A stretch of 57,592 bases of DNA, taken from NCBI GenBank assembly GCA_036559195.1, contig DATBTN010000046.1, forward strand, positions 1 to 57,592. Direction: 5' to 3'. The DNA comes from Candidatus Baltobacteraceae bacterium. GTDB lineage: Bacteria > Vulcanimicrobiota > Vulcanimicrobiia > Vulcanimicrobiales > Vulcanimicrobiaceae. The position numbers were made by a program, and so were the translations under genes. The notes below the pieces were generated by a model that made no database searches, was not told where the DNA came from, and saw only the letters and a list, made by a program, of their open reading frames with translations. Each line of letters opens with the position of its first letter. Within the stretch, counting starts at the first letter, position 1. This document shows, piece after piece, positions 30,330-54,473 of this stretch.

Positions 30330-30635
30330 TTATTGAATATCGAAGGCGCGCGCCAACCCGCGCAGATGCAGCAACCGTCCGATAGCCGGATTGACGTTGA
30401 CGATCTGCATGCGCGATCGCCCGCTGCGAAGCCGTTTTTGGTTGACTCGGATCAAGACGTCCACGTCCGTGGTTTCCATCGTCGTGAGTTCGGCGAGGTC
30501 GGCGATCGCCGGGTCGCCCGACTCGAGCGCTTCCATCTTGATGCGAAGTTCGTCAGCGTCGATCGAGTCGAACGTCCCGGCGAGGCGCACGACGACGGCT
30601 TTATCCAAATCGTCGTCGTGTCGAAGTTTTTGCAC
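30330..30635 (-). CDS. STAS-domain protein (anti-sigma factor antagonist type)
   Basis: A 101-residue single STAS domain, with VVVRLAGTFDSIDADELRIK (first strand and helix) and a loop TTMETTDVDVLIRVNQKRL where anti-sigma antagonists carry a phosphorylatable Ser; here the position reads Thr-Thr-Asp. Start GTG, with GAGGAG six bases before it. It follows the CARDB-like gene by six bases and is the last gene of the amyloid operon. It may be part of a partner-switching circuit, but no kinase or sigma factor is nearby. No signal peptide, so cytosolic. Confidence 0.8.
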   Translation of the reverse strand: MQKLRHDDDLDKAVVVRLAGTFDSIDADELRIKMEALESGDPAIADLAELTTMETTDVDVLIRVNQKRLRSGRSRMQIVNVNPAIGRLLHLRGLARAFDIQ

Positions 30636-30641
30636 GGCTCC

Positions 30642-31127
30642 TCACGCCGGCTTGCACTGTCCGGGCTGGACCGTGAAGTCGATCGTGCGGCTATTCGGGC
30701 CGACGATGACGAGTAGTCGATGCGCCCCGGGTACCGCGCCCAGATTCTCTTTCGTCGCTTTGATGTAGATCGGAATTGCCGTCGGCTGGTTCTTTTTCAG
30801 CGCCTTCACCGTGGTCGCGCCGACGAACTGTTTCTTGTCGTCCATCGCGTAAGCGACGCCCAACGGCTGCGGATCGGCGCCCGTCGATGTGTTCTCCACG
30901 ATAGCGCGTACCCGGAATATCGGCGCCCCGACGGTGCAGGCCTTGGCGATGCCGACGGTCGGGTCGAGGTTCTCGAGCATGAGTGGCGCCGGGACGATGA
31001 CGCCGGGTGCGGCGGGAGTCGTCGCCGCCGATTTTGCCGACGGCGGAACGGAGACTTGCGACAGGCCGGGCGCCGTCGACGCCATGACGCCGAGCAGTGC
31101 GAGGGTGCCGATGTAAAACGGTTTCAC
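30642..31127 (-). CDS. periplasmic CARDB/Ig-like protein in amyloid operon
   Basis: A 161-residue exported protein (signal MKPFYIGTLALLGVMAST) with one Ig-like domain: PIFRVRAIVENTSTGADPQP, AIPIYIKATKE, GAHRLLVIVGPNSRTIDFTV, the pattern of CARDB adhesion/carrier modules. Two Cys (KACTVG and GQCKPA) could form a disulfide. Start GTG after AAGGAGCACGATTTC. It follows the FapF-like gene by 13 bases. There is no counterpart in Pseudomonas fap; a periplasmic chaperone or holdase for fibre subunits is possible, taking the place of FapA, which I did not find. Confidence 0.7.
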   Translation of the reverse strand: MKPFYIGTLALLGVMASTAPGLSQVSVPPSAKSAATTPAAPGVIVPAPLMLENLDPTVGIAKACTVGAPIFRVRAIVENTSTGADPQPLGVAYAMDDKKQFVGATTVKALKKNQPTAIPIYIKATKENLGAVPGAHRLLVIVGPNSRTIDFTVQPGQCKPA

Positions 31128-31140
31128 GAAATCGTGCTCC

Positions 31141-32451
31141 TTACGGGAAGCTATGCGGCAGCCGCAAGCTGAATTGGAAACTGGGGGCGTCGTGGGTGAC
31201 CCCGATGCCGAGCATCGTCTGCACCGAGACTTTCTTGTTCACGGCATAGGTCGCGCCGATGTTCAGCATACCGGCGTTCACGCTGCTGCCCGGCACGCCG
31301 ATCCAGGGACCTTTTACGCGCTCGCGAGTCGACGCAACGAGCGTGTCCTGGAAAGAAAACGACGTGCTGATCCGATCGTTGAGGGCAAACGCCGTACCGA
31401 TCGATACGCTAATGGCGTTGCCGGGCGCTACGAATCCGGGCTGCAGGGTGCCGTCGGTGGGGCTGATATCGGTGAAATGTCCGGGAATGTTGTAATAGTA
31501 TCCGACACTCCCGAAAACGATCGCGGGATCGAGTTGTTTGATGATCGTCGCGCCCGCCGAAACGCTGTAGACGCCCGAACCGGTCGGTAAATTGCGCGCA
31601 TAGGAAAGGTTGTTGTTCGCGCGATCCTGCGCGATCTTGATCCCGTAAGGGTTTTGACCCGTGGGAATGGTCAGGTGCGCGTTTACGATAACGTTCGGTG
31701 CGCTTAGCGAGCGTTGACGCAGTTGATAATACGCCCCGACCGTAATATCTCCAAGGCCCGAGTTGGCAATGGTCTTTTCACTCGCTTGCGACGACGAACT
31801 ATCGGCGCCTGCCGACGTATACGTCGAACTGCGCGCGAGGTATGGAATCGTCACGTCGTATTGCAGCCGTTTAGTCGCGCCATACGTAACGTTGAGACTA
31901 GGTGAGAAGACGTTATTCTGCTGTCGGCTAACGTTGATGTTGCCGAGGAAGATCGCGCCGAGCGCGAGGAATCCGTTGAGCGTAAAGAACCGATTGTCCG
32001 CGTAGGTATACGTGAGCTGAGGCGTTATGGTGAAGCCCTTTTGAAAGAGCGCGTTTTGCTCTTGGAGCGTGGCCTTCACGCTGTTCTGCTCGGGCGCCGG
32101 CGCTCCGAACGTCGGCTTGCCGTTCGAGTCGCCCGCGGGCGGGGTCACGAGGCGTGCGCCGGTCGGCGATCCCGCGCCGCCGTCGCTCGAGGCAAAGCGC
32201 ATGGGCCCCATGACGAGCGTTTTCGGCTGCAACTGCGAATGCTTCTTCCGGTTCGCCGCCGCCAAAGCGGGCAGACGGTGCTCGAGCCGGTCGATCTTTA
32301 CTTGCTGTTCGGCGTTGCGTTTCTCAAGCTGCTGCAGTTCGCGCTGCATCGCCTGGAGTTGCTGGGCTACCGTGCTCTTCGGCGCCGCGCCGGCGGGGCC
32401 GGCGCCGAGTGAAAGAATGGAGAGAACGAGGATCCATGCTAGACACTTCAT
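31141..32451 (-). CDS. fapF: FapF-like outer-membrane amyloid secretion pore
   Basis: A 436-residue protein with a signal peptide, an N-terminal coiled coil (about 30-65, TVAQQLQAMQRELQQLEKRN then KIDRLEHRL), a Ser/Gly linker, and a beta-barrel region of alternating strands (FTITPQLTYTYADNRFFTL, YQLRQRSLSAPNVIVNAHL, ISVSIGTAFALNDRISTSFS, VSVQTMLGIGVTHDAPSFQF). Pseudomonas FapF has the same plan: a trimerising periplasmic coiled coil joined to a barrel through which FapC, B and E pass; the size also agrees. It lies directly after the FapE-like gene with AAAGGG upstream. Alternative: a generic phenol-MetA-type transporter barrel; the neighbourhood argues for FapF. Confidence 0.75.
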   Translation of the reverse strand: MKCLAWILVLSILSLGAGPAGAAPKSTVAQQLQAMQRELQQLEKRNAEQQVKIDRLEHRLPALAAANRKKHSQLQPKTLVMGPMRFASSDGGAGSPTGARLVTPPAGDSNGKPTFGAPAPEQNSVKATLQEQNALFQKGFTITPQLTYTYADNRFFTLNGFLALGAIFLGNINVSRQQNNVFSPSLNVTYGATKRLQYDVTIPYLARSSTYTSAGADSSSSQASEKTIANSGLGDITVGAYYQLRQRSLSAPNVIVNAHLTIPTGQNPYGIKIAQDRANNNLSYARNLPTGSGVYSVSAGATIIKQLDPAIVFGSVGYYYNIPGHFTDISPTDGTLQPGFVAPGNAISVSIGTAFALNDRISTSFSFQDTLVASTRERVKGPWIGVPGSSVNAGMLNIGATYAVNKKVSVQTMLGIGVTHDAPSFQFSLRLPHSFP

Positions 32452-32462
32452 GATGTTGCCCT

Positions 32463-33347
32463 TTAGTGAATGCCGATGACGTTTTGGATCGTCGGCAGGA
32501 GGCTGCCGGCGCTAAATTGCGAGGGATTTGCCAGCTGCACGTTCACGCCGAGTTGATTGCTGATTTGATTGAAATCGCTCGTCAGCGCGACGCTTTGCGT
32601 GATGCCGTTTTGGCCGACCGCTTGCGAGACGACCCCTTGAGGGGTAGCGATCGAAACGTGCAGTCCCGTGCCGTCGAACGACACGCTGCAGGCGGCCCCA
32701 CACGGGGGCGCGTTGGACGGCGGTCCGGGGCTTAGCACCGGAACGATCTGCCCGACCTGCACGGTCGCCTGATTGCTCACGCTATTGCCGTTTCCGGCCA
32801 CCTGAACGCTTTGACCCACGCCGTTCACGACGCTCGTCGCCGGCGGCGTCCCGTCGATACTGCCGCCGGTAGACGGCGTGGACGGCAGCCCGTTATTGGT
32901 CGAGGTGGTCCACGTCGAAATCGACGGCGTCCCGGTTCGCAGGTCGACGCCGATCGTCGCGCCGGCCGACACACCCGCCGGTCCGGTAGCCGTTGCAACT
33001 TGCCAGCTCGAGACGACCTGCAGGCCGAAGTACACAACCTGGCCGCCGCCGCTCGAAACGTTCGCGAGGCCCGCACCCAGCGTGCCGCGTCCGGCCGACG
33101 CAACTGCCGCGGCCGGAGACTGACTCAGCAGCGGATCGAGCCGCGCGCCGACCGTCGCAGCCGCGGCGGTCGCACCGCGAACGGGCGCAACGATGAATTC
33201 TCCGCGCATGTTTTGCAGCGTCGCATCGGAGATCGGCCGCAAGCCGGCGAGCGCATCGAAGGTGCCGGCGGCCGCCGACCCGGCGGACGCACCGCTCAGT
33301 GAAACGGCCAACGCGCCCATCAGAAGTCTGCGAGCAAAGGGTGTCAT
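32463..33347 (-). CDS. fapE: FapE-like secreted amyloid accessory protein
   Basis: A 294-residue exported protein. I chose the ATG giving MTPFARRLLMGALAVSLSG, preceded by GAGG; an ATG 24 bases upstream overlaps the peptidase stop (TAATG). After the signal comes LRPISDATLQNMRGEFIVAP, a motif shared with FapE-like and other amyloid-linked proteins. Next come GGQVVYFGLQVVSSWQ and the segment GVGQSVQVAGNGNSVSNQA, and Val/Gln/Asn-rich strands to the end. A Cys pair occurs in NAPPCGAACS. In Pseudomonas, FapE follows FapD and is secreted as a minor fibre-associated component; order and composition match. The precise role is inferred. Confidence 0.68.
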   Translation of the reverse strand: MTPFARRLLMGALAVSLSGASAGSAAAGTFDALAGLRPISDATLQNMRGEFIVAPVRGATAAAATVGARLDPLLSQSPAAAVASAGRGTLGAGLANVSSGGGQVVYFGLQVVSSWQVATATGPAGVSAGATIGVDLRTGTPSISTWTTSTNNGLPSTPSTGGSIDGTPPATSVVNGVGQSVQVAGNGNSVSNQATVQVGQIVPVLSPGPPSNAPPCGAACSVSFDGTGLHVSIATPQGVVSQAVGQNGITQSVALTSDFNQISNQLGVNVQLANPSQFSAGSLLPTIQNVIGIH

Positions 33348-33370
33348 TACAATCCTCGATTTCGCCGTCA

Positions 33371-34075
33371 TTACAGTCGGCTCGGACCCGGAATAAGAAT
33401 GGTCATAAGCAACGAGTTTGAGAGCATGTCGGAGGGCGAGAGAATATTATCGGCGAGCGCATTGGTCGAGCTTCCGCGCTCCGATTCGAGCGGGTTTCGC
33501 GGATCGTACAGCGGCGCGCGAATGACGAAAATGATGTTTCCCGTCCAGGCCGCCGAGAATTCGCTCGTAGGAATTGCGCGATTTCCCAAGGCCGGATCGG
33601 CCACATACGTATACTGCGGCGTGGCTTTTTTAAGCACGACGAAGTGTTCGTATCCGTCGACGGTCAGCAGCACGATGCTGGGGACGTTTAACGCATAGAG
33701 CTTTTCGAGGGAGATTTGATAACCGGCTCCCGACATGCCCAGGTTCTGTACGTAATTCTTGATGTCCAGCAGGGAAAAACCGCGTTCGCGCACGCTCTTG
33801 GCATCGCTGACCTGGAGCATGCCGCGCACCACGCCGTCTTCGTCCGTCTGGATAAAGTAGGCGTACCTGAGGATGGTCGCCACCGCGGCCGCGCCGCAGC
33901 TATAGTCCACCCGTTGACGCACGACGTTTGTAAAGCGCTCGTCGGAGAGCGTCTTCACGTGAACTAACGCATCGCCCGCGCCCGGCATAAACCCGATCGA
34001 GCCGTCTGCCCGAGCGGGAGTAGCGAGCCCGGTGAGCAGCGCGAGTCCCACAATCGCCGACGCTATCAATCGCAT
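33371..34075 (-). CDS. fapD: FapD-like periplasmic C39 cysteine peptidase
   Basis: A 234-residue protein with a signal peptide (MRLIASAIVGLALLTGLATP) and a C39 papain-like domain. The catalytic set is visible: Gln54 and Cys60 in QRVDYSCGAAAVAT, His144 in GYEHFVVL and Asp160 in VADPALGN. It has no ABC transporter part, unlike bacteriocin exporters. FapD of Pseudomonas is such a stand-alone C39 protein, needed for fibre subunit export, and lies between fapC and fapE as here. It may process or chaperone subunits in the periplasm. The start is fixed by AAGGATGG and the signal peptide. Confidence 0.85.
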   Translation of the reverse strand: MRLIASAIVGLALLTGLATPARADGSIGFMPGAGDALVHVKTLSDERFTNVVRQRVDYSCGAAAVATILRYAYFIQTDEDGVVRGMLQVSDAKSVRERGFSLLDIKNYVQNLGMSGAGYQISLEKLYALNVPSIVLLTVDGYEHFVVLKKATPQYTYVADPALGNRAIPTSEFSAAWTGNIIFVIRAPLYDPRNPLESERGSSTNALADNILSPSDMLSNSLLMTILIPGPSRL

Positions 34076-34105
34076 GGGTGGTAAGCCATCCTTCTGGTCG
34101 TCTGT

Positions 34106-34147
34106 AAAAAAGAGCGGCAAGCGGATCCGCATACGGATCCGCTTGCC
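34106..34147 (-). terminator. strong hairpin plus T tract between fapC-like and fapD-like genes
   Basis: A perfect 14-base-pair stem (GGCAAGCGGATCCG / CGGATCCGCTTGCC) with a four-base loop is followed on the minus strand by GCTC and six T. It sits 12 bases after the fibre-gene stop and ends 30 bases before the peptidase start. It should partially terminate transcription, so that the fibre subunit is made in excess over the export proteins, or protect the upstream mRNA. Confidence 0.75.
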
Positions 34148-34158
34148 TTTGCCGTAGG

Positions 34159-36807
34159 TTACGGTTTCGTGTTGATGATGGTCTGGTTGGCTTGCTGATT
34201 CAGATCGCCGGCAGCGTTATTCGCGCTGACGTTACCCGCGGCGTTTTGGAAGGCGTTCCCCTGGAAGAGCGCCGAGTTTCCAACGTCGCTTGAGATCGAA
34301 TTAGAGAGGTTCTGTTGTCCGATGTGGGCGCTGAGGCTCGACAACGTACCGTTGGTGATAAGAACCATCGCATTGCTTTGCTGGTTCATGTTTCCAGCGG
34401 CGTTGTTCGCGCCGATATTGCCCTTGGCATTTTGGAAAGCGTTGTCCTCAAACGTGGCCTGGTTGTTGCCTTCGGCCTCGTCGCGGAATTGGCTGATGCC
34501 ATCGTACTTGTTGTTTTCGGAGACTTGGGTGAGATCGACCATATCGCCGGTGACCTGGGGTCCGTTGCCGCAAGTCGGATCCGCGCACACGTTGGCCAGA
34601 ATAGTCGTGCTATTCTGCTGTTGATTTGCGTTGCCGCCGGCGTTATTGACACCGATGTTACCGGAAGCGTTCGAGAACACGGAGTCCTCGTAGGTCGCCT
34701 CTTGATTGCCGTTCGCATCGCCCTTGGTCATGCTCACGCCGGCCTCTTCCTGGGCATTCGTGGAACCGAGTGAGAGGCTTTCCGCAAGCTGATCGATGTA
34801 GAGCGCGTTGGACTGTTGATTGTTGGTGCCGCCGGCGTTGTTCGCACCGATGTTACCGGTGGCATGCGAGAACGCGTTTCCTTCGAATTCGCCCTCTTGA
34901 TTGCCCGCATCGACGATCGTCGTCCCGAGCTGAGCTTGGAACGAGGTGTTCGTCTGCGATGTCGTGGCGTCGGATCCTTCGTTTACTTTGGGCGTCGTCG
35001 TTTTTGCCGCAACGTTCATGACCGCGAGGTTCTGCTGCTGATTCATGTCGCCCGCGGCGTTATTCGCGCCGACGTTTCCGCTAGCATTCGCAAAGGCGTT
35101 CCCGTCGAAATTCGCTACGTTCCCGGTGTCGTGGTAGATGCTGTTCTCGACGGAGACCTGCTCCACGGCCGTGAAGGCGCCGTCAACTTCGCCGTTGGTT
35201 ATGAGAGCAAGCATGTTGGCTTGCTGGTTCATGTTACCGCTGGCGTTGTTGGCGCCGATGTTGCCGCTGGCCGCCTGGAAGGCGTTGTCGAGGTACGTGG
35301 CCGTGTTGTGGCCGTCGGCCGGTTCGCTGTTGCGATCCGCCTTGCCGGTATACGAGTTTCCGGCGGAGACCTGAACGCTGCCGATCTCCGCGTTATTGAT
35401 CTCCGGCCCGCCGCCGCACGAAGAGACGCAGGTGTTGGAGAAGATTGCCGCGCTGTTCTGCTGCTGGTTGCCGTTGCCGGCTGCATTGTTAACGCCGATG
35501 TTGCCGCTGGCGGTTCGGAAGGCGTTATCTTCAAAGGTGGCTTCGTTGTTGCCGGCCGATGCAAACGTCTTATCGCCGAACGTACCGTTGTGGTCGATTC
35601 TGAAACCGGATTGTACCTGGGTGTCGATTGCAGAGAGGCTCATATCTTCAGCGAGGACGTCGAGATAGAGCTGGTTCTGCTGCTGATTGAGGGTTCCGGC
35701 CGCGTTGTTGGCGCCGATGTTTCCGCTCGCGTTCGAGAACGCGTTGCCTTGGAACTCGGCCTCTTGGTTACCGGCGTTGGTGACGTAGCCGGTCGATGTT
35801 TGAGAGAGCGAGAGCGTGAGCGGCTCGATCGTATCGCCGCTCTCGGGGACTTGAGTGGCCGTCGGAGCGGGCTTGGCAGCCACGTTCAAGACGGCTTGAT
35901 TCGACTGCTGATTCATGTCGCCGGCGGCGTTGTTGACGCCGATGTTGCCCGACGCGCCGGAGAAGGAGCCGTCGAAGCTCGCGATGTTATTCGAATCATC
36001 GATGGCGTTGCTAGGGGCGCCGCCCTTCTTGCCTGCGTTGGCTTGCGTCCCAGCGACGTTGAGATTTTCGATCTCGCCGTTGGTGAGCAGCGCCAGCTGG
36101 TTGCCCTGCTGGTTCAAGTTCCCGGCTGCGTTGTTGGCGCCGATGTTGCCCGAGGCACCTGCGAACGCGTTGTCTGAATAGGAGGCGTTGTTGGAGCCGA
36201 AGCTGCCGGTAAAGCCGGCGTCAAACGTTCCGGTATCGCCGAATAGAAGCAGACCGCCCGCGGTTTGAGTCAGGCTGATCTGCCCCGCCTTGCCCGAGGT
36301 CGTCAGTTCGGGTCCGCTGCCGCACGTATTGTTGCAGCTGGAGAGAATGATCGCCGTGTTCTGTTGTTGGTTCGCGTTGCCGGCTGCGTTGTTGGCGCCG
36401 ATGTTGCCGGACGCTTTTTGGAATACGTTATCTTCGTACGTCGCTTCGTTGTTTCCGCTCGCGTGAAAAACGCGGTTTACATCGGAACTATTATCGATTT
36501 GAGTGTTCGAAAGATCTTGCGTATTCTTGTCGTTTAGGGCCAGCTCCGTGGCCGTCTGATTGATGTACAACTGGTTGGCTTGTTCGTTCAACGAGCCGGA
36601 CGCGTTGTTCATGCCGATGGAGCCGCTTGCATTTTGGAAGGCATTGTCTTGGAGTTCGGCTTCTTGGAAGCCGCCGTTGATTACGACTGCCGACGTGGTG
36701 GTTTGGTTGACGGCATTGTTAACGGAGCTGGCAGCCGCCGCGGGGATAACCCACGTTACGAGCATCGCCAGCGTCGTTACCGCCGAGAGAAGTTTTTTCG
36801 ATCGCAT
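34159..36807 (-). CDS. fapC: FapC-like functional amyloid fibre subunit, 12 repeats
   Basis: An 882-residue secreted protein with a signal peptide (MRSKKLLSAVTTLAMLVTWV). It carries twelve repeats with the core NAFxxASGNIGxNNAAGxxN followed by QQxN, close to the GVNxAAGxxNQQxN core of Pseudomonas FapC. Repeats come in a fixed cycle of four types, judged by what follows the core: type 1 LYIDQLAE, type 2 a Cys pair then GPEI, type 3 LALITNGE, type 4 AVxNVAAK; the cycle runs three times. Linkers are about 50 residues. FapC of Pseudomonas has three repeats in about 250-350 residues, so this is far longer. Asn/Gln/Ala/Gly-rich throughout. The Cys pairs (Cx3C, Cx3C, Cx4C) could form disulfides. AAAGGACG precedes the ATG. 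Confidence 0.85.
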   Translation of the reverse strand: MRSKKLLSAVTTLAMLVTWVIPAAAASSVNNAVNQTTTSAVVINGGFQEAELQDNAFQNASGSIGMNNASGSLNEQANQLYINQTATELALNDKNTQDLSNTQIDNSSDVNRVFHASGNNEATYEDNVFQKASGNIGANNAAGNANQQQNTAIILSSCNNTCGSGPELTTSGKAGQISLTQTAGGLLLFGDTGTFDAGFTGSFGSNNASYSDNAFAGASGNIGANNAAGNLNQQGNQLALLTNGEIENLNVAGTQANAGKKGGAPSNAIDDSNNIASFDGSFSGASGNIGVNNAAGDMNQQSNQAVLNVAAKPAPTATQVPESGDTIEPLTLSLSQTSTGYVTNAGNQEAEFQGNAFSNASGNIGANNAAGTLNQQQNQLYLDVLAEDMSLSAIDTQVQSGFRIDHNGTFGDKTFASAGNNEATFEDNAFRTASGNIGVNNAAGNGNQQQNSAAIFSNTCVSSCGGGPEINNAEIGSVQVSAGNSYTGKADRNSEPADGHNTATYLDNAFQAASGNIGANNASGNMNQQANMLALITNGEVDGAFTAVEQVSVENSIYHDTGNVANFDGNAFANASGNVGANNAAGDMNQQQNLAVMNVAAKTTTPKVNEGSDATTSQTNTSFQAQLGTTIVDAGNQEGEFEGNAFSHATGNIGANNAGGTNNQQSNALYIDQLAESLSLGSTNAQEEAGVSMTKGDANGNQEATYEDSVFSNASGNIGVNNAGGNANQQQNSTTILANVCADPTCGNGPQVTGDMVDLTQVSENNKYDGISQFRDEAEGNNQATFEDNAFQNAKGNIGANNAAGNMNQQSNAMVLITNGTLSSLSAHIGQQNLSNSISSDVGNSALFQGNAFQNAAGNVSANNAAGDLNQQANQTIINTKP

Positions 36808-36847
36808 TGTATGGTTCGTCCTTTTCAGAAGACTTGAAGTTCGGACT

Positions 36848-37447
36848 TTAAGGACCGATGGAACCCTGTTGGACTTGCAACAGGAAGCTGTTGGTCGCGG
36901 TGTTGGCCGAGCCGGCGGTCTGATTCACTTGCACGATGCCGGAGCTTCCCGCAAATGTCGTGGGGCCGACGCGAACGCGATCGCCGAGACCGGTGGAAGG
37001 CGTTGTTTTGGATATAACGTGTTGCGTGGGAACCACGCCCTGCAGCGATGTGTCCGTCATCTGGGCGGCGCTGAGGTCATACTCCAAGATCGTCACATTG
37101 GCGTGCGCGTTTCCGTTGCCGGCTGCCTGATTGATTTGCAGAATACCCGCGGTGTTTGAAAACGCGAAACCGATGATCTCAACGTCGCCCGACGCTCCGC
37201 TCGTGTCGGTCACCTGCGTGACGTTTACGTGGAGCGGTGAATGGGAGACGATCGCGAGGTTTGCCTGAACGTTGCCGGCACCGGCTGCTTGATTGACTTT
37301 GACGATGCCCAGAACGTCGGTAAAGCTCGAATCCTGAATGATGGCGGTGTCGGGTGGCACGCTTTGCGCGTACGCAATCGCCGGAGTGCCGAAAAAGCAC
37401 GCCAGCGCACCGGCCAGAAGTGGGATAAACCGGGGCCTCAAATACAT
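36848..37447 (-). CDS. fapB: FapB-like minor amyloid component with NQAAG repeats
   Basis: A 199-residue secreted protein. The ATG after AAGGAG gives MYLRPRFIPLLAGALACFFG; an earlier TTG frame would precede the signal peptide. Three imperfect repeats are visible: LGIVKVNQAAGAGNVQANLA, AGILQINQAAGNGNAHANVT and SGIVQVNQTAGSANTATNSF, each with the GI-V-NQ-AG-N-AN pattern of Fap fibre proteins. It is the first gene of the operon, 40 bases before the large fibre gene, as fapB precedes fapC. FapB is thought to nucleate fibres. It could equally be a FapA- or FapE-type member; the B label rests on order and size. Confidence 0.68.
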   Translation of the reverse strand: MYLRPRFIPLLAGALACFFGTPAIAYAQSVPPDTAIIQDSSFTDVLGIVKVNQAAGAGNVQANLAIVSHSPLHVNVTQVTDTSGASGDVEIIGFAFSNTAGILQINQAAGNGNAHANVTILEYDLSAAQMTDTSLQGVVPTQHVISKTTPSTGLGDRVRVGPTTFAGSSGIVQVNQTAGSANTATNSFLLQVQQGSIGP

Positions 37448-37589: not shown

Positions 37590-40500
37590 CTAGGCGGCGC
37601 AGAAGGGCGGCCACTCTTTGCGATCGTGTGCCGCAATGAGTTGACGGTGAAACGGCAGCGCGCTATAGAGTTCGCGAGATCGATCGTCGGGCAGCGCCGT
37701 CAGCCGCGCCGCGAAGCGCTCGTGCGCGCGGGTGAGCCAGATGGCCGCCGCGTTCTCGCGCCCGAGCCGATACCATTGCGCCAACGCCCAGGCCGCTCGC
37801 GGATAATGCGGATGGTCGGGGGCGTTCGCGAGGGCCACGGCGAGAGCGGCCGCCAGCGGTTGCGCCGCTACGGGCTCCGAACGTTCGATCCGAACTAGCA
37901 GCAGCGTCGCCAGACAAAGCGTTTCGCCGTCGCGATCGGCGCATCGCCGGCTTGCATCGAGCGCGGCCAGCAGATGCTCGAGGGCGTCGTCGAGATTACC
38001 GGTGCCGCGCTCGGCGGATCCGAGTTGCTGCAGCGCGGTCGCTTCGAAGCGTGCGTGGCCGAGTCCGCGGTAGAGCTCGAGCGCCTGACGGGCGCGCGCC
38101 GCTGCCGCCGCCGCGTTCCCGCAATATTCTTCGGTCAGCCCCTCGTTGAGTTGGCAGAGGCCGAGAATATACGCATTATCCTCGCGCTGCGCGATCGATC
38201 GTGCGATTCCGATATGCGTGCGAGAGCGTTCGACGTCGCCAACGTCGACGAGCAGATAGCTGAGATTGACGTTTGCCTGCATCAACCCGTAGGCCGTCGC
38301 CGTCTCTTCAAAAATTGCGATGGCGTCGTTGAAGTAGCGCAGCGACTCGCCGACCTTCCACTCGTTGTGCGCGGCGTTGGCCAGATTGACGAGGGCGCTC
38401 GCCTCCCCTTCGCGATCGCCCATCGAGCGCGAAAGGTCGACGGCGCGCTGGCCGACGTTGCGCAACGCGACCGTATCTTCGGCAACCTGCGCGACGATGA
38501 GCGCGCCGCGAAGCGCGGCGCGCAGCATCGGCGTCTGTGCGGCGGCGGTCGCGATGGCGACGGCGCGTTCCGTTAAGGCGCCCGCGCGATCCATATCGCC
38601 CAGGTAGGAACTCGCCCAGGCGCACGTCGAGAGCGCGTCGACGCGGCCGCGATCGTCGTCGAGCGCGTCGAAGGCCAAGAACGCATCCCACGCCGCTTCG
38701 TCGGCCGCCTTATAGCGCCCCAACGCATGGAGGTGCAGCGCGCGCTGTTCGAGCGCGCGCGCCCGCCAGCGTTCGTCGCCGGTTCGGGCGGCTGCATCGG
38801 CGAGCAAATCGACGAGTTTACCTTGCGCCTCGCGGTCGCCGAGGCGACGTTTGAGCATGACGGCGCGGATTAGCGCTTCGCATCGAATCGCGGGTTCGGC
38901 GATGCCGTCGGCGAGGGAGAGCATGTCGTCGATGTGCCGCTCCTGCGCCTTCCGGTTGCCGCGCAGGTCGTCGACGCGTTCGCAGATTTTCAGCAGATCG
39001 AAGAGCAGCCCGGCGTCGTCGAGCGCTAGCTCCAAGCCTCGCTGGGCTACTTCGAAAGCGGTCTCGTTGGCGAAGACGCCGAGCGCCGCTTCGGCCGCGA
39101 TCGCATAGTAGCGCGCGGCGCGCAGCTGATCGCCGGCGCGGTCGTAGTGAAAGGCGATCTCGCGCGCCAATTCCTCCAAACGTTCGGGATAGAGCGTCTC
39201 CATGATGCGGGCGACGCGATGGTGGCGGCGCCGGCGCGCCGGCGGATCGATAACGGCATAGAGCGCGGCCTGGATTAATTGATGCGTAAAAACGTAATCG
39301 AACCGATTGAGCGACGAGCTTTCGCGCACGATCCGCGCGTCGAGCAGATCGCCCAGGGCATCGAGAACCTCCGCTTCCGTCCAACCCGAAACCTCGCGCA
39401 CCACGTCGAGATTGAACGCTTGTCCGATGGTTGCGGCGATCTCACCGAACGCGCGAGCGGCCGGCGCCAATTCGAGAACGCGCGCGTCGATAATGCCGTG
39501 CGCGCCGGCAGACGCGGTTGCGTCCGGCGCGTGACTGCGGGCGATCGCCGACTCGAGAAAGAGCGGATTGCCTTCGCTTATCGCGTAGAGTCGAGGCGCT
39601 TCGTTGGGATCGATAGCCAACCGCGTGACGAGTTCGTTCACCGCTTCGCTGCCTAGCCGCCCGAGCGAGAGCTGTTCCAAACGCGCTTCTTGCGAGAGCG
39701 TGCGGCGCAAGATTCGAACGGGCGAAGCCGGCGACGCTTCTTCGCGATACGTCACCACGAGCAGCACCGGTTTGCCGGTGACGCGGCGCGCCAGATACTC
39801 GACGGCGCGCGTCGTGGCGGAGCCCGCCCAATGCAGATCTTCAAGTACGAGCAGCACGGGGCGCGGTTGCGCCATCGCCTCGAGACATACCGCGAACGCG
39901 TCGAACAGACGCGGCTGGTCCGACGCCGAGTCGAGAGCCGCAACCGGCGGCAGTTCGCGCGCCGAACGCAGATCCGGCACGAGATGCGCGAGTATCCCGA
40001 GCCAGAGCGGATTCACGTCGATCGTCGCCAGAAATGGAACGGCGGCTCGATAGGCCTCGGCGAGTGCCTGATACGGGCGGCTCTCGGGAAACGCCGTGGT
40101 CCCTAAAAAGACGCGCGCGCCCTGCGCCAACGCGAGCGTCGCGACTTCGGAGACCAATCGCGACTTGCCGATACCGGCTTCGCCGCCGACCAGCAGCGTC
40201 GCGCCGTAACCGCGTGCGGCGCGGCTCCACAACTGCATGGCCGCCGCGAGTTCCGGCGCGCGGCCCACGAACGGAAGCGGCGCCCGTTCGCTCTGCGCGA
40301 CCGGATCGGCGGCGCCGGCCGGAGTGTCGGGCAGCGGCGCGTTGCGCAGGATCGCGTCGCGCACCGCAATCGTTTCGGGCATCACCTCGATACGCATCTC
40401 CGATTGCAGGCGCTGCGCGAAACGATCGAATATCTCGAGCGCTCCGGATCGATCGCCGCCCGCGTACCGAATCGCCATCAACGCACGCAGCGCGTCTTCG

Positions 40501-41072
40501 CGCCACGGGTCCGATTCGATCGTGCGCTGCGCGTAGAACTCGGCCCGGTCGAAATCGCGCCGGCTGCGATAACGCAGCGTAAGCTGCGCGAGCGCGTCGA
40601 GGTAGCGGGCACGATAGCGCTCGCGCCGCGTTTCGATCCAGTCGTCGTAGACGGTGTCGACGAGATCGCCGCGATAGAGCGCCGCGGCGTCTTCGAGCGT
40701 TTCGGGATTTTCGATCAGCCGCTCGAACTCGATCGCGTCGCACCAGAGCGGCGCGTCCGGGTTCCAGCGGACCGTCGGGCCTTCGGCGAGTATCCAGGGT
40801 ACGTCGGAACGCGGGAGCGCTTGCTGCAGGCGGTAGAGATGGCGGCGCAGATTGGCGCGCGCGTCTTCTTCGGAGTCGTCGGGCCAAAACGCAAACGAAA
40901 GCGCGTCGCGGCCGATCGGCTGCGATTGGTTGAGCACGAGGTAGGCCAGCAGCGGCAGCGTCTTCGGCGGAGCCGCGAACTTCAGGACCTCACCGTCACG
41001 CTCGATTCGGGGAGATCCGAAGAGTCGCAGTCCCACGCCCGGCCGCGCCGGTACCTTGAAGAGGTCGTTCAA
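37590..41072 (-). CDS. SARP/BTAD-type regulator with AAA ATPase and TPR domains
   Basis: An 1160-residue transcription factor. The N terminus is an OmpR-like winged helix (about 15-100: RLFGSPRIERDGEVLKF, then ALSFAFWPDDSEEDARANLR), followed by a bacterial transcriptional activation domain (about 110-250). A STAND/AAA ATPase follows, with Walker A LVGGEAGIGKSRLV and Walker B PVLLVLEDLHWAG, and then a long series of TPR-like helical repeats to the end. This AfsR/MalT-like layout integrates a signal through nucleotide binding. The start is TTG after GGAGGG. It is oriented into the amyloid operon, separated from the first fibre gene by 142 bases, and so is the best candidate regulator, unproven. 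Confidence 0.9.
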   Translation of the reverse strand: MNDLFKVPARPGVGLRLFGSPRIERDGEVLKFAAPPKTLPLLAYLVLNQSQPIGRDALSFAFWPDDSEEDARANLRRHLYRLQQALPRSDVPWILAEGPTVRWNPDAPLWCDAIEFERLIENPETLEDAAALYRGDLVDTVYDDWIETRRERYRARYLDALAQLTLRYRSRRDFDRAEFYAQRTIESDPWREDALRALMAIRYAGGDRSGALEIFDRFAQRLQSEMRIEVMPETIAVRDAILRNAPLPDTPAGAADPVAQSERAPLPFVGRAPELAAAMQLWSRAARGYGATLLVGGEAGIGKSRLVSEVATLALAQGARVFLGTTAFPESRPYQALAEAYRAAVPFLATIDVNPLWLGILAHLVPDLRSARELPPVAALDSASDQPRLFDAFAVCLEAMAQPRPVLLVLEDLHWAGSATTRAVEYLARRVTGKPVLLVVTYREEASPASPVRILRRTLSQEARLEQLSLGRLGSEAVNELVTRLAIDPNEAPRLYAISEGNPLFLESAIARSHAPDATASAGAHGIIDARVLELAPAARAFGEIAATIGQAFNLDVVREVSGWTEAEVLDALGDLLDARIVRESSSLNRFDYVFTHQLIQAALYAVIDPPARRRRHHRVARIMETLYPERLEELAREIAFHYDRAGDQLRAARYYAIAAEAALGVFANETAFEVAQRGLELALDDAGLLFDLLKICERVDDLRGNRKAQERHIDDMLSLADGIAEPAIRCEALIRAVMLKRRLGDREAQGKLVDLLADAAARTGDERWRARALEQRALHLHALGRYKAADEAAWDAFLAFDALDDDRGRVDALSTCAWASSYLGDMDRAGALTERAVAIATAAAQTPMLRAALRGALIVAQVAEDTVALRNVGQRAVDLSRSMGDREGEASALVNLANAAHNEWKVGESLRYFNDAIAIFEETATAYGLMQANVNLSYLLVDVGDVERSRTHIGIARSIAQREDNAYILGLCQLNEGLTEEYCGNAAAAAARARQALELYRGLGHARFEATALQQLGSAERGTGNLDDALEHLLAALDASRRCADRDGETLCLATLLLVRIERSEPVAAQPLAAALAVALANAPDHPHYPRAAWALAQWYRLGRENAAAIWLTRAHERFAARLTALPDDRSRELYSALPFHRQLIAAHDRKEWPPFCAA

Positions 41073-41421: not shown

Positions 41422-42843
41422 ATGAGCGCCCTCGTATCGGCACGGCTTTCAAAAGCCGCTCCTATGAGCTTTACCGCAACGGCCGCGCCGGTGCGGTACC
41501 CCGCGCGTTTGGTCTACCGGCTCGTCGCCACCGATTTCGTCATGTTCTTGAGCGCGTTCTTCCTCGCGAGCGGCGTCGTCCACGCGATCGGTCGCGGCGC
41601 CTCGGAGCCGCGGCTCATCGCTTCGATGGTCGTAAGCAGCTTGCTCTGGCTTGCGATCTTCGAGCGCGCCGGATCGTACCGCGAATCGCTCGACCTGCGC
41701 TGGTGGGATGAATTCTATTGGGTCGCCGCGACCGTGATTCTCGGAATCGTGCCGCAGCTCGCGCTCTTCGCGTTCCTGCCGCAGATGCCGTCGTCGCGAT
41801 TGCTGCTCGTGGTGGCGGCGCTCGTTGCGATCGTCACCGTGAGCCTGGCTCGAATCTTCGTGAAAGCCGGGTGGCAAACCGATGGCCGGTTGGATTGCCG
41901 GATCGCCGTCGTCGGCGATCCGCAACGCGTTGCGTCGACGGAGACGCTGTTGCGGCAGGCGGAGCACGTTGCCGTGCTGCCGTTGCCGCTCAAGCGTTGG
42001 AACGACGACGTTGGGAGCATCGGCTTGGCGGATTGGTTCGGCGCCGCTCGCGCCTGGCAAGCCGACCGCATTCTCTTCACCGAAGTGCCGAATCCCGCGG
42101 CCATGCCGGGTATCGCGCTGACCGCGATGGAGCATCGCATCGCCGTCTCGTTCGCCGCACCGCGTATCCTCGGCGACATCTACAAACACTTCGATTTCGA
42201 TAACGTCGGCCGGCAAGGCGTCATCGTACCGATCGTGCCGCGGGCCTGCCGTCGTCCGGGCGCAACGGCCAAACGCGTCTTCGATATCGTTTTTGCGCTG
42301 GCGGGGCTCGTGCTCTTTTGCATTCCGATGCTCGTAGCCGCGGTTGCGATCTTCGTGGAATCCGGCGCGCCCGTGCTGCTGCGGCAGCAACGCGTCGGCA
42401 AGGACGGCAAGCCGTTCGATATGTTCAAGTTCCGTTCGATGCGCCGCAACGCCGAAGAGACGACCGGCGCCGTCTGGGCGATCGCCGGCGATCGCCGGAT
42501 CACGACGGTTGGGCGGATCCTTCGGCGAACCAGTCTCGACGAGTTGCCGCAGATTTTCAACGTTTTGAACGGGCAAATGTCGATCGTGGGGCCGCGCCCC
42601 GAGCGTCCGGTATTCGCCGAGCGCTTTCGCCGCCAGCTCCCGAACTACGACGGCCGGAACGCCGTGCTCCCGGGAATCACCGGGTGGTCGCACGTCTACA
42701 TGGACCGCAATATCGATACCTCTGCGATCGAACAGCGCCTCGGACACGATCTCTTCTATATCGAACATTGGTCGGTGCTCATGGATCTCGCGATCGTCTG
42801 TAAGACGGCCTGCGAGTTCCTGTTTCATAGCGTTGCGGCATGA
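41422..42843 (+). CDS. priming sugar-phosphate transferase (polyprenyl, WcaJ/PssY family)
   Basis: Transfers a sugar-1-phosphate from a nucleotide sugar to undecaprenyl phosphate, the first step of exopolysaccharide repeat assembly. The 473-residue protein has four to five N-terminal transmembrane helices, a Rossmann-like central domain (about 150-270) and the bacterial transferase domain with RVGKDGKPFDMFKFRSMR, RRTSLDELPQIFNVLNGQMS and IVGPRPERPVF. It is the first gene of the exopolysaccharide cluster, overlapping the next gene by four bases. The sugar (Glc, Gal or other) cannot be told. Confidence 0.92.
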   Translation: MSALVSARLSKAAPMSFTATAAPVRYPARLVYRLVATDFVMFLSAFFLASGVVHAIGRGASEPRLIASMVVSSLLWLAIFERAGSYRESLDLRWWDEFYWVAATVILGIVPQLALFAFLPQMPSSRLLLVVAALVAIVTVSLARIFVKAGWQTDGRLDCRIAVVGDPQRVASTETLLRQAEHVAVLPLPLKRWNDDVGSIGLADWFGAARAWQADRILFTEVPNPAAMPGIALTAMEHRIAVSFAAPRILGDIYKHFDFDNVGRQGVIVPIVPRACRRPGATAKRVFDIVFALAGLVLFCIPMLVAAVAIFVESGAPVLLRQQRVGKDGKPFDMFKFRSMRRNAEETTGAVWAIAGDRRITTVGRILRRTSLDELPQIFNVLNGQMSIVGPRPERPVFAERFRRQLPNYDGRNAVLPGITGWSHVYMDRNIDTSAIEQRLGHDLFYIEHWSVLMDLAIVCKTACEFLFHSVAA

Positions 42844-44003
42844 CGCTCGCGATCGTTTCGTCGCGCTATCCATATAGCGGAGCCGAATCGTTTTTGGCCG
42901 CCGAAACGCGCGGGCTCCAAAAACACTTCGCTCGCGTGATCGTGATCCCGGCCCGTCACGGAATGTTTTCCATCGAAACGTTCGCGGCGGCCCTCGGCGT
43001 TTTGCGAGCGCGCCCATTGCACGTCGCGCGCGTCTTCACCTCGCTGCTCTTCGCGCCGAGCTCCCTGCGCATCAAGCTGAAGAACGTGCTGCTGTTTCCG
43101 CGCGGTCTTTGTGTCGCCGCGATCGTGCGCCGCGAAAATGTGGAGCATCTCCATGCCTATTGGCTCTCGGCGCCGGCGACGGTAGCCTTGATCGCGTCGC
43201 GGCTAACGGGCGTCGGTTGGAGCGCTAGCGCGCACGCGTGGGATATTTACGAGCGCAACCTTACCGCCGAAAAGCTCGCGAGTGCGGCCTTCGTGCGCAC
43301 GATTTCGAAACAGGGCCTAGAACATCTCGCCGTGATTGCGGGCGAGCGTTTTCGCGACAAGCTGCGCTGCGTGCGCTTGGGCGTCGATATTCCTCGCCAA
43401 ACCGCCGCGCCGGCGCATGCCGAGATCGCGCTCGTATGCGCCGCCAATCTCGTCCCGAAGAAAGGGCACTCCACCCTCTTGCGCGCGCTCAAACTCGTCG
43501 ACGACGCCGGCATTGCGTTCCGCTGCGACATCGTGGGGAAAGGGCCGCTTCAACCCCGGCTGCGTCGGCAAATCGAGGCGCTGAATCTACGAAACAAGGC
43601 GCTGCTGCTGGGATATCGAGCGCACGGCCGTTTGCTCGCCGGTCTTCGTCGCGGCGACTACGACGTCGCCATCCTCGCGAGCCGCCAGGACGGATGCCGT
43701 ATGGAAGGCATTCCGGTCGCGCTGATCGAGGCCATGGCCGCCGGACTTTCGTGTATCGGTACGAGCTCGGGTGCGGTCGGCGAATTGTTGGACGAAACGT
43801 GCGGCGTCGTGGTTCGCGTTCACGACGAACGCGCGCTCGCCGATGCGGTCGTGCGGCTCGCGACGAACGCGCGGCTGCGCCACGCTTTGGGCGCGAGCGC
43901 GAGGGCGCGGGTAACGGCCGAGTTTAACGCCGCCCTTACGACGGCCGAACTCGCCGCGCTCATTCGAGCGGCATGCGAGCATCCATTGGAGGTTAGCGCG
44001 TGA
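42840..44003 (+). CDS. glycosyltransferase family 4
   Basis: A 387-residue GT-B fold retaining glycosyltransferase. The N-terminal domain binds the acceptor (HAYWLSAPATVALIASRL). The C-terminal nucleotide-sugar domain has VCAANLVPKKGHSTLLRALK, the GYRAHGRLLAGLRRGDYDVA loop and the EX7E-type motif EGIPVALIEAMAAGLSCIGT. It overlaps both neighbours by four bases, so it is tightly coupled. It adds one sugar to the lipid-linked repeat. Specificity unknown. Confidence 0.92.
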   Translation: MTLAIVSSRYPYSGAESFLAAETRGLQKHFARVIVIPARHGMFSIETFAAALGVLRARPLHVARVFTSLLFAPSSLRIKLKNVLLFPRGLCVAAIVRRENVEHLHAYWLSAPATVALIASRLTGVGWSASAHAWDIYERNLTAEKLASAAFVRTISKQGLEHLAVIAGERFRDKLRCVRLGVDIPRQTAAPAHAEIALVCAANLVPKKGHSTLLRALKLVDDAGIAFRCDIVGKGPLQPRLRRQIEALNLRNKALLLGYRAHGRLLAGLRRGDYDVAILASRQDGCRMEGIPVALIEAMAAGLSCIGTSSGAVGELLDETCGVVVRVHDERALADAVVRLATNARLRHALGASARARVTAEFNAALTTAELAALIRAACEHPLEVSA

Positions 44004-45295
44004 ACGTCTGCGTGATCGGCCTCGGATACGTCGGCCTTCCCACGGCCGCCCTGGCGGCCGCAGCCGGACACGCCGTCGCCGGCTACGACGCACAGGAGCG
44101 TCTGCGCGCGGATTTAACTCGCCGAATCGTTCGCGGCGTCGAGCGCGAGGTGCGCGACTTGGCAACGCACGAGATCGCCGCCGGTCGTCTGCGGATCTGC
44201 GACGAGGTCGAGCCGGCGGATGCCTATATCGTTTGCGTGCCTACGCCGGCGCTCGGCGACCGGCCCGATCTGCGGCATTTCGAAGATGCGGCCGAGCGCG
44301 TGTGCCGCGTGATCGGCCGCGGTGAGTTGCTGATCGTGGAATCGACCGTTCCGCCCGGCACGACCGAACGAGTCGTGTCGCGCGCGCTGCACCGGCATGG
44401 AAAAAGCTTGAAGGACATCCGGCTCGCGCACGCTCCGGAGCGCGTCTTGCCGGGTTCGATCGTGCGCGAGCTTCGCGAGAACGAACGCATCATCGGCGGC
44501 CGCGTTGCGGCCGATGCGGCCGCGGCCAAAGCGCTCTATGCCTCGTTCGTCAACGCCGCCATACACACGACGGATCTGCGGACTGCGGAATTCGTAAAAG
44601 TTATCGAGAACGCGTATCGCGACGTCAACATCGCCTTCGCTAACGAGCTGGCGCTATTCTGCGAGGGGTTAGGCATCGATGTCTGGGAGGCGATCGGACT
44701 TGCCAACAATCACCCGCGCGTCAACATCCTGCAGCCGGGACCGGGTGTCGGGGGGCACTGCATTCCGATCGATCCGCGGTTTTTAGCCGATGCCAATCCG
44801 TTTGCGACCGAACTCATCCAAGCGTCGCGACGCGTAAACGACCGGATGCCGTTTCTCATCGCGCGGCGCATCCTCAGGTACGTCGACGTGTGCGGCCCGC
44901 AGCGTCGAATCGCCCTTTTCGGTGCGACGTACAAAGCAAACGTCAACGACGTTCGCGGAAGCCCGGCTCGAAAAATCTGCGAGTTCCTGAACGAGCAGGG
45001 ATGCGAAACCACTATTTTCGATCCGCACGCTCGGCTCGCCGATCTGTGCGCGAGCGCTCGCGAGGCCCTGGCCGGCGCCGACGCACTCGTGCTGGTCGTC
45101 GATCACGACGCCTTTCGAGCGATAACGCCGGCGCTCGCTCGAGAAGTCATGCGAACGCCGATCCTCATCGACTGCCGGAATTATTTCAAGACGCCGGAGT
45201 GGCAGGCGGCGGGCTTTACCGTCTACACGCTGGGCAAATCCAGCGATCTCCCGCGCACGGCTGCCCTCGGAATCTCCGGCCGGCTCGGCGCGTAA
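44000..45295 (+). CDS. nucleotide-sugar dehydrogenase (UDP-ManNAcA/UDP-Glc type)
   Basis: Two-step NAD-dependent oxidation of a UDP-hexose to the uronic acid. The 431-residue protein has the N-terminal Rossmann motif VIGLGYVGLPTAALAAAAGH, STVPPGTTERV, AFVKVIENAYRDVNIAFANE in slightly altered form (EFVKV), and the catalytic Cys in GPGVGGHCIPIDPRFLA. The pattern and length fit WecC/TuaD relatives, WecC-like by the GPGVGGHCI motif. It supplies an acidic sugar for the polymer. GTG start with GGAGG seven bases upstream. Confidence 0.92.
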   Translation: MNVCVIGLGYVGLPTAALAAAAGHAVAGYDAQERLRADLTRRIVRGVEREVRDLATHEIAAGRLRICDEVEPADAYIVCVPTPALGDRPDLRHFEDAAERVCRVIGRGELLIVESTVPPGTTERVVSRALHRHGKSLKDIRLAHAPERVLPGSIVRELRENERIIGGRVAADAAAAKALYASFVNAAIHTTDLRTAEFVKVIENAYRDVNIAFANELALFCEGLGIDVWEAIGLANNHPRVNILQPGPGVGGHCIPIDPRFLADANPFATELIQASRRVNDRMPFLIARRILRYVDVCGPQRRIALFGATYKANVNDVRGSPARKICEFLNEQGCETTIFDPHARLADLCASAREALAGADALVLVVDHDAFRAITPALAREVMRTPILIDCRNYFKTPEWQAAGFTVYTLGKSSDLPRTAALGISGRLGA

Positions 45296-45298
45296 ACG

Positions 45299-46822
45299 AT
45301 GCGGTGCGTCGTGCTGGTCGATCGAGCGCTCGTTCCGAGCTGGCAGCACCGGTGCGTCGACCTCCTGCGAACCGAACACGACGTCGCGGTGCTCGAGCGT
45401 CCCGCCGTTGCCGCGCGCGAGGGCGTTCTCGCGCGAGTGCTGCGCGCGCTCGGAGGCTCCGCACTGCGAACGGCGCCGATCGTTTGCGGCGGTACCGTTT
45501 CGCCCGGGGTCGACGTGGTCGTCGATCTGCGCGAATCGGCAGGTCCCCGCGAACCGGCGCTCGCGAGTCGTTTCGGTGAGTGGTATTTTTCCGATCAATT
45601 CGGACGCCCGTTGACGCAATTTCCCGCGGCCGCGGATATCGCGCGCGGCTCGGCCACGTTCACCATACTGCTTTGCCGCCGGCAGGGCGGCGGCAAGGCG
45701 GCGGTCATCCGGCGCGGCCGATTCAAAACGCTCTACACCTACGCGCGCACGTTGGAGATCGCGCTCGGTGAATGCGCGCGTTGGCCGCTGGAGCGTTTGA
45801 AAGGCGGCGCAGCCGCCGGCGCGGCGGCGCCGCTGCTGCGCGAGACGAGCGCGCGGCGCGTTACGTTTTCGATCCTCGGATTTGCTTACCAGCAATGCAA
45901 GACGCTCGCCATCCACGTCTTCAACTATTTTCTTACCGACGCCGTTTGGCGAGTCGGCGTGGTGCACGCGCCCCCGGCCGCGTTCCTCAATCCCGATTTT
46001 GCGCCGCCGATCCGGTGGATCGAACGCGAGGCGGCGGAGTTTCTCGCCGACCCGTTCGTACTCGCGGCGGGCGGCCATGCGTGGCTTCTAACGGAATCGC
46101 TCGACCGTAAGTCCAGGAACGGCTACATCAGCTGTACGGAGATCCTTCCGGATTGGCAAACGCGCGAGCGCACGACGGTCTTGCGCTCGGCGACGCATCT
46201 CTCGTATCCGTATGCGTTTGCGCATCGCGGGGAGTGGTACGTCGTACCGGAGAGCGCGGCCGAGAATCGCGTCTCGCTCTACAAAATCGTCGACATGCCG
46301 CACGGCTGGGAGCGAGTCGCAACGCTGCTCGACGGCGTCCCGGCCTGCGATAGCACGATTTTCCAGTACGGCGGCCGGTGGTGGCTGTTCTGCACGCTAC
46401 GTTCGCGGGATGCGAATCTCAATCTCTTCGCGTATCACGCGGAGCACTTGTTCGGTCCGTGGTGCGAACACGCGGCGAATCCGATCAAGACGGATATCGG
46501 CTCGGCGCGGCCGGCCGGAGCCCCGTTTACATTCAAGGGGCAGCTCTATCGGCCGGCCCAGGATAGCTCGATTGCCTACGGCGACCGGATCGTGATTTGC
46601 CGCATCGTGACGCTCTCGCCGACCGAGTTTGCCGAAGAAACGGTGGCGTCGTATGGCGGCAGCCGCGGCCGCATTTTCCGCACCGGCAATCACACGCTTT
46701 CTCACACCGGAAGCACGAGCGTCATCGACGCGAAGCAGACGGTCTTCGCTTCTCCGCGCGTAGTGATGGATCGGGCCGTGCAATCGTACCGGCGTTTGAG
46801 GCTCCGATTCCATGGTGGCTAG
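45299..46822 (+). CDS. GIPC-transferase-like sugar transferase with beta-propeller domain
   Basis: A 507-residue protein. The first 170 residues hold a formyltransferase-like segment (VVLVDRALVPSWQH, FGEWYFSDQFGRPLTQFP). The remainder is propeller-like, with repeats such as FLADPFVLAAGGHAWLLTES, LSYPYAFAHRGEWYVVPESA, DSTIFQYGGRWWLFCTLRSR and GAPFTFKGQLYRPAQDSS. The second half resembles the domain of plant glucosamine inositolphosphorylceramide transferases, found in bacterial polysaccharide clusters. Probably a sugar-modifying or glycosyl-transfer enzyme; the reaction is unproven. Its end overlaps the next gene by 11 bases. Confidence 0.7.
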   Translation: MRCVVLVDRALVPSWQHRCVDLLRTEHDVAVLERPAVAAREGVLARVLRALGGSALRTAPIVCGGTVSPGVDVVVDLRESAGPREPALASRFGEWYFSDQFGRPLTQFPAAADIARGSATFTILLCRRQGGGKAAVIRRGRFKTLYTYARTLEIALGECARWPLERLKGGAAAGAAAPLLRETSARRVTFSILGFAYQQCKTLAIHVFNYFLTDAVWRVGVVHAPPAAFLNPDFAPPIRWIEREAAEFLADPFVLAAGGHAWLLTESLDRKSRNGYISCTEILPDWQTRERTTVLRSATHLSYPYAFAHRGEWYVVPESAAENRVSLYKIVDMPHGWERVATLLDGVPACDSTIFQYGGRWWLFCTLRSRDANLNLFAYHAEHLFGPWCEHAANPIKTDIGSARPAGAPFTFKGQLYRPAQDSSIAYGDRIVICRIVTLSPTEFAEETVASYGGSRGRIFRTGNHTLSHTGSTSVIDAKQTVFASPRVVMDRAVQSYRRLRLRFHGG

Positions 46823-48203: not shown

Positions 48204-48276
48204 CCGATAACGGTATAGAGCGCCCGGCTCCCTCGCGGAGCTCATTGATCACCTCTGAGCGCCAAACTCAAAACAG

Positions 48277-48348
48277 GGAGGCCGAAACGTTGACGCGTTT
48301 CGACCTCCGATCCTAACGAGGCTCTCTTTCGGGTTGCAGCCCGGAAAG
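48277..48348 (+). promoter_or_regulatory. structured leader before secreted hydrolase-like gene
   Basis: Two hairpins: GGAGGCCGAAACG / CGTTTCGACCTCC (12 pairs, one mismatch, six-base loop) and CTTTCGGG / CCCGGAAAG (bulged). The second contains the GGAAAG that would serve as ribosome site ten bases before the ATG, so folding could block translation. It matches no riboswitch class that I can recognise. Confidence 0.4.
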
Positions 48349-48358
48349 ATACACGACG

Positions 48359-49909: not shown

Positions 49910-49974
49910 TTTAGTCGCCCCGTATCAGGGAATTGGGTTCTGCTCCGCGACCGTGGCCCGTGCAATAATGGGCC

Positions 49975-54466: not shown

Positions 54467-54473
54467 GGAACCG

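What the first reader, a model, noticed from the sequence alone, without database searches (positions are those of the whole stretch)
30330..37447. A Fap-type functional-amyloid operon with extra genes in an apparently non-proteobacterial genome
Five consecutive genes match the Pseudomonas fap operon in order and kind: small NQAAG-repeat secreted protein (B-like), large NNAAGxxNQQxN repeat protein (C), stand-alone periplasmic C39 peptidase with Cys60/His144/Asp160 (D), a FapE-like protein, and a coiled-coil plus barrel outer-membrane protein (F). From established knowledge, fap systems are described mainly in Proteobacteria; the host here looks like a different diderm phylum (inference). No FapA was found, and a CARDB-like protein and a STAS protein are added.
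Basis: partly seen in the sequence, partly recalled or inferred. Interest (0 to 1): 0.92.

Follow-up and report, generated by a model that had tools for sequence, protein, structure and literature searches.

The report
Fap amyloid operon in Eremiobacterota
This stretch is a real operon for making and exporting Fap amyloid fibres, the biofilm glue known from Pseudomonas, in an uncultured bacterium of a different phylum, and its main fibre protein carries twelve building-block repeats instead of the usual three.

Summary
FapF matches the solved FapF barrel at about 1e-66 and FapC matches solved FapC fibrils at about 1e-10. The host is an Eremiobacterota (Vulcanimicrobiota) MAG; the contig is genuine. 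Eight of 149 genomes of the phylum, in five genera of one family, carry the operon; their FapF proteins form one clade (99/97) next to acidophilic Proteobacteria and Acidithiobacillus. FapA is absent, as is common. The STAS gene is real; the 'CARDB-like' protein is a secreted beta-rich orphan I could not assign. Neither was seen beside fap in relatives. New detail: FapC has 12 repeats, an internal triplication of a four-repeat block with a cysteine pair per block, against 3 in 69 of 83 FapC compared. A strong hairpin follows fapC here and, in differing sequence, in nearly all 82 fap operons examined; I found no description of it. Published GTDB screens already report fap outside Proteobacteria and longer FapC repeat arrays, so this is a new member with variant features, not a new kind. 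All evidence is from sequence.

The parts
36848..37447 (-). fapB: minor/nucleator amyloid subunit, 199 aa, signal peptide, three NQAAG-type repeats
   Evidence: NCBIfam NF058557 FapB 3.9e-19; translation
34159..36807 (-). fapC: major amyloid subunit, 882 aa, 12 imperfect repeats as three blocks of four; Cys pairs in linkers 2, 6 and 10
   Evidence: NF058558 FapC 7.5e-63, over its cut-off; repeat analysis; FapC fibril structures 9nqd/9u4u 1e-10
34116..34147 (-). 14-bp hairpin followed by GCTCTTTTTT between fapC and the likely fapD start: putative internal attenuator
33371..34132 (-). fapD: periplasmic C39 cysteine peptidase; likely real start Met20 (about 34075), since the first ATG lies in the hairpin loop
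   Evidence: NF058616 FapD 2.9e-53; PF03412 3.6e-22; Cys/His/Asp invariant
32463..33371 (-). fapE: minor fibre-associated subunit, 302 aa
   Evidence: NF058559 FapE 1.1e-13; alignment with relatives
31141..32451 (-). fapF: coiled coil plus 12-stranded-barrel outer-membrane amyloid exporter with both PTG motifs
   Evidence: NF058560 FapF 3.2e-94; PDB 5o68 9.5e-67; A1
30642..31127 (-). secreted 161-aa orphan, probably an Ig-like beta-sandwich; not found in 59 other Eremiobacterota genomes
30330..30635 (-). STAS-domain protein (anti-sigma-antagonist-like), last gene of the apparent transcription unit
   Evidence: PF01740 2.7e-06; TIGR02886 4.2e-09
37590..41072 (-). BTAD/AAA/TPR regulator upstream on the same strand; member of a large family in this phylum, so not fap-specific
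41422..56301 (+). neighbouring exopolysaccharide cluster (sugar transferase, glycosyltransferases, UDP-sugar dehydrogenase, Wzy-like, ABC-2 exporter)

Best explanation
It is a fap operon of the fapBCDEF type. FapB, FapC and FapE cross the inner membrane by Sec. FapD, a periplasmic cysteine peptidase, performs a cleavage needed for export (FapE is the suspected substrate in Pseudomonas). FapF, a gated outer-membrane barrel with a periplasmic coiled coil, lets the unfolded subunits out. FapB then nucleates FapC into cross-beta fibres in the matrix. Here each FapC monomer would contribute 12 stacked repeat layers instead of 3, which should make a longer covalently linked fibre segment that depends less on nucleation by FapB. 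A hairpin after fapC probably lets less transcription through to fapDEF, so that subunits are made in excess of the export machinery. Shown here: gene identity, order, intact reading frames, conserved catalytic and PTG residues, repeat architecture, hairpin. Inferred from Pseudomonas work (PMC5557850, PMC6173800): the steps of export and fibre growth. Inferred only: the effect of 12 repeats, attenuation, and the roles of the STAS and orphan proteins.
For: Each protein matches its own Fap model, and order is canonical. FapF matches crystal structures 5o65/5o67/5o68 at about 1e-66 over 312 residues. FapC matches solved fibrils 9nqd/9u4u at 1e-10, and a low-confidence model of one block has 9u4u as its only significant fold match. 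The same gene order is present in other genera of the family. The FapF tree places all eight Eremiobacterota in one clade. FapD catalytic residues and both PTG motifs are invariant in relatives. An exopolysaccharide cluster adjoins.
Against: Except for FapC, the proteins score below NCBI's curated cut-offs, which are set for close relatives. FapE is weak (51 bits). No expression, secretion or fibre data exist. FapA, a proposed chaperone, is missing and nothing clearly replaces it. The AlphaFold model of the FapC block is of low confidence (mean pLDDT 50).
Confidence: 0.92

Rival explanations
1. It is a Fil-type pilus/adhesin system (FilB peptidase and FilC barrel), not Fap.
For: FapD and FapF also match NF050078 FilB (2.4e-35) and NF050079 FilC (2.1e-17).
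Against: Both score far higher against Fap models (180 v 122 bits; 316 v 64 bits). FapB, FapC and FapE match Fap models and FapC has the GNxGxNxxAGxxNQQxN repeat.
Confidence: 0.03
2. The operon was acquired by transfer from acidophilic Proteobacteria that live in the same acid-mine habitats, rather than inherited from the ancestor of the phylum.
For: Nearest FapF relatives outside the phylum are Proteobacteria MAGs (90/82) and Acidithiobacillus (100/98). Distribution is patchy, 8 of 149 genomes, and the operon sits at different chromosomal places in different genera.
Against: The eight Eremiobacterota FapF are one clade separated by long branches, and FapF identity roughly follows host LptG identity, so any transfer is old. 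FapD leaves one member unplaced but does not reject one clade (p 0.44). G+C content is not aberrant. The direction of transfer cannot be rooted here.
Confidence: 0.35
3. The extra STAS and secreted orphan genes are functional parts of this Fap system: a regulator and a periplasmic chaperone replacing FapA.
For: Gaps of 13 and 6 bases after fapF, same strand; the orphan has a signal-peptide-like N-terminus.
Against: The orphan was not found in 59 other Eremiobacterota genomes, and other Eremiobacterota fap loci read lack both genes. Relatives without FapA manage without them.
Confidence: 0.2
4. The hairpin after fapC is an ordinary terminator, and fapDEF have their own promoter.
For: Terminator-like with a T tract.
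Against: No sigma-70-like site was found on this strand between fapC and fapD, though the host's promoter type is unknown.
Confidence: 0.25

Closest known systems
Fap system of Pseudomonas (fapABCDEF; UK4, PAO1)
   Same: Order B-C-D-E-F, repeat motif, C39 FapD with Cys/His/Asp, FapF barrel with coiled coil and two PTG motifs
   Different: No fapA; FapC 12 repeats instead of 3; two extra downstream genes; host in another phylum
Fap of Acidithiobacillus and unnamed acid-mine Proteobacteria
   Same: No FapA detected in those tested; expanded FapC, 5-8 repeats; nearest FapF clade
   Different: In Acidithiobacillus fapF lies on the opposite strand to fapCDE; no three-by-four block structure described; no Cys pairs in the two sequences read
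Fap loci of other Eremiobacterota (G006, G017, G020, G099, G100, G115, G117)
   Same: fapBCDEF-type order, no FapA, FapF about 42-53% identical
   Different: FapC has 3 or 4 repeats; flanking genes differ; no STAS or orphan gene beside them where read
Curli (csg)
   Same: Works alike: secreted repeat amyloid, outer-membrane exporter, nucleator
   Different: Unrelated proteins

Membership tests
Fap functional amyloid system | FapB/FapC with GNxGxNxxAGxxNQQxN-type imperfect repeats | tested here: met
   NF058557/NF058558; 12 repeats
Fap functional amyloid system | Stand-alone periplasmic C39 peptidase FapD with catalytic Cys/His | tested here: met
   NF058616 2.9e-53, PF03412; residues invariant
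Fap functional amyloid system | FapE in the operon | tested here: met
   NF058559 1.1e-13, in place between D and F; weak
Fap functional amyloid system | FapF barrel with coiled coil and two PTG motifs | tested here: met
   NF058560 3.2e-94; PDB 5o68; PTG 263-265 and 289-291 invariant
Fap functional amyloid system | fapBCDEF gene order | tested here: met
Fap functional amyloid system | FapA present (often missing, not required) | tested here: not met
   NF058556 gives no match in the genome; rings in a Pseudomonas genome at 1.9e-32; loss of fapA is among the commonest variants (PMC3792158)
Fap functional amyloid system | Three repeats in FapC (about 94% of known FapC, not absolute) | tested here: not met
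   12 repeats; PMC12392863 gives 94.2% with three; PMC3792158 reports 4-8 and 16 in Acidithiobacillus and Vibrio
Fap functional amyloid system | Secreted cross-beta fibres on the cell surface | not testable with these tools
   needs expression, dye binding and microscopy
FilBC pilus system | Best match to FilB/FilC models | tested here: not met
   Fap models score far higher
CARDB domain (for 30642-31127) | Match to the CARDB model or fold | tested here: inconclusive
   No Pfam hit at E<=1; low-confidence beta-sandwich, no significant fold match

The most novel reading that the evidence does not exclude
Fap operons across phyla share a positionally conserved hairpin after fapC that acts as an internal attenuator setting the subunit-to-exporter ratio; and in this lineage a four-repeat FapC was triplicated into a 12-layer, cysteine-bearing monomer that nucleates itself, making a Fap fibre of a different mechanical kind.
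Probability: 0.4. Interest if true: 0.62.

Novelty: new member of a known kind. Interest (0 to 1): 0.5.

Why it matters
It places a complete Fap system in Eremiobacterota, a little-cultured phylum, next to exopolysaccharide genes, which suggests how these bacteria build a biofilm matrix. Within one bacterial family FapC ranges from 3 to 4 to 12 repeats. That gives a natural series for asking how repeat number sets fibre nucleation, stability and export, in a system described as almost fixed at three repeats. The hairpin after fapC, seen in nearly every fap operon examined, is a simple testable idea for how subunit supply is balanced against export.

Tried and rejected
Contamination by a proteobacterial contig: rejected, since the adjacent LptG is 74% identical to that of another genome of the family and about 47-74% across it. 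A special link to the upstream BTAD regulator: not supported; it has many paralogues in the phylum and two other Eremiobacterota fap loci have LuxR-type regulators instead. An 'empty site' comparison: MltE-LptG are kept together in several fap-free relatives, but what lies upstream varies, so no clean insertion boundary was found. Rfam and tRNA scans of the window: nothing. Structure of the orphan protein: too poor to use. My first regular-expression repeat counts were too low for Acidithiobacillus and were replaced by HMM counts.

Full report
Identity. Seven genes lie head to tail on the minus strand, 37447 to 30330. NCBIfam, which now has separate models for the Fap proteins, gives FapB 3.9e-19, FapC 7.5e-63 (over its cut-off), FapD 2.9e-53, FapE 1.1e-13 and FapF 3.2e-94, in canonical order. 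FapF aligns over residues 124-435 with the crystallised FapF of Pseudomonas at about 1e-66, including both PTG motifs described in PMC5557850. FapD belongs to the C39 family with Cys79, His163 and Asp179 invariant in relatives. Its real start is probably Met20, because the first ATG lies in a hairpin loop and Met20 opens a signal-peptide-like stretch. One FapC block matches the two solved FapC fibrils at 1e-10.

Host. The window is contig 46 of a 2.48 Mb, 97% complete MAG. A gene close to the operon, lptG, is 74% identical to that of one of them. So the contig is Eremiobacterota (NCBI: Vulcanimicrobiota), not a proteobacterial contaminant.

Distribution. FapF was found in 8 of 149 genomes of the phylum (this one included), in five genera of one family. 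The B-C-D-E-F order was seen in the loci read. In the FapF tree the eight are one clade (99/97), sister to Proteobacteria MAGs from acid-mine samples (90/82; the habitat is inferred from isolate names) and, with Acidithiobacillus, separate from Pseudomonas and others (100/98). FapD agrees for seven of eight and does not reject the eighth. The operon occupies different sites in different genera. An old entry into the family, from or shared with acidophiles, followed by losses and rearrangement, fits best; direction is not shown. The tree holds only the 80 best matches of a larger set, so phyla with more distant Fap are not sampled.

FapC. An HMM of the repeat finds 12 copies, against 3 in 69 of 83 FapC compared; all but one of the other departures from three (4 to 8) are in the Eremiobacterota/acid-mine/Acidithiobacillus group. 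Repeats at the same position modulo four are 65% identical against 54% for others; none of 20,000 permutations reached this. The linkers repeat with the same period, and linkers 2, 6 and 10 each carry a Cys pair (CNNTC, CVSSC, CADPTC). Relatives G006, G115 and G117 have four repeats, so the simplest history is triplication of a four-repeat FapC (inference). Published work gives three repeats in 94.2% of FapC (PMC12392863) and 4-8 or 16 in Acidithiobacillus and Vibrio, for which self-nucleation was proposed (PMC3792158). The number is therefore unusual, not unprecedented. AlphaFold gives three strands per repeat, in register across four repeats, at low confidence; its only fold match under E 0.001 is FapC 9u4u, with a low TM-score.

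Hairpin. Just after the fapC stop is a 14-bp stem followed by GCTCTTTTTT. In 82 fap operons the stem after fapC averages 10.1 pairs, and 68% beat all 40 dinucleotide shuffles; after fapD and fapE the figures are 5.8 pairs and 5-8%. By lineage, 18 of 19 have a longer hairpin after fapC than after fapD (lineages are not fully independent, and some have strong hairpins after fapE too). Within Pseudomonas six of ten pairs show a compensatory change, mostly from single divergent sequences. The held literature gave no description. Internal terminators that set subunit ratios are known elsewhere (PMC9045158, abstract). Attenuation here is inference.

Extras. FapA is absent from all eight Eremiobacterota genomes by its own model, which rings in a Pseudomonas genome at 1.9e-32. 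The STAS protein is supported. The 'CARDB-like' protein has no family match and a poor model, and was not found in 59 other genomes. Tight spacing suggests co-transcription; a role is unproven. An exopolysaccharide cluster begins 350 bases beyond the upstream regulator, consistent with a matrix role.

Verdict. A genuine Fap operon in a phylum not named in the screens I could read, with a strongly expanded FapC. The largest screen (PMC12822426, GTDB v226, 1602 clusters) may already contain it in supplementary data that I could not open. Nothing here shows that fibres are made.

Noticed in passing
window 34116-34147 (-); fapC-fapD junction in 82 operons, e.g. L006, L007, L015, L017, L052: A strong GC-rich hairpin, often with a T tract, follows fapC in nearly all fap operons; sequence differs between genera, position is kept.
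   Followed up: partly
window 41422-56301: Exopolysaccharide biosynthesis and ABC-2 export cluster divergently placed next to the fap operon and its upstream regulator.
   Followed up: partly
L008 5274-6959: FapC of genome G017 has a very long Ser/Asn-rich low-complexity linker between its first and later repeats.
   Followed up: no
L006 12124-14642; L007 4041-5943: In two other Eremiobacterota genera the fap operon is flanked by LuxR/NarL-type regulator genes in place of the BTAD regulator.
   Followed up: no
L016: A fap operon in a Bryobacterales (Acidobacteriota) MAG, grouping with a betaproteobacterial MAG in the FapF tree.
   Followed up: partly
window 37590-41072: BTAD/AAA/TPR regulators of this type are strongly multiplied in Eremiobacterota, with up to six close paralogues per genome.
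   Followed up: no
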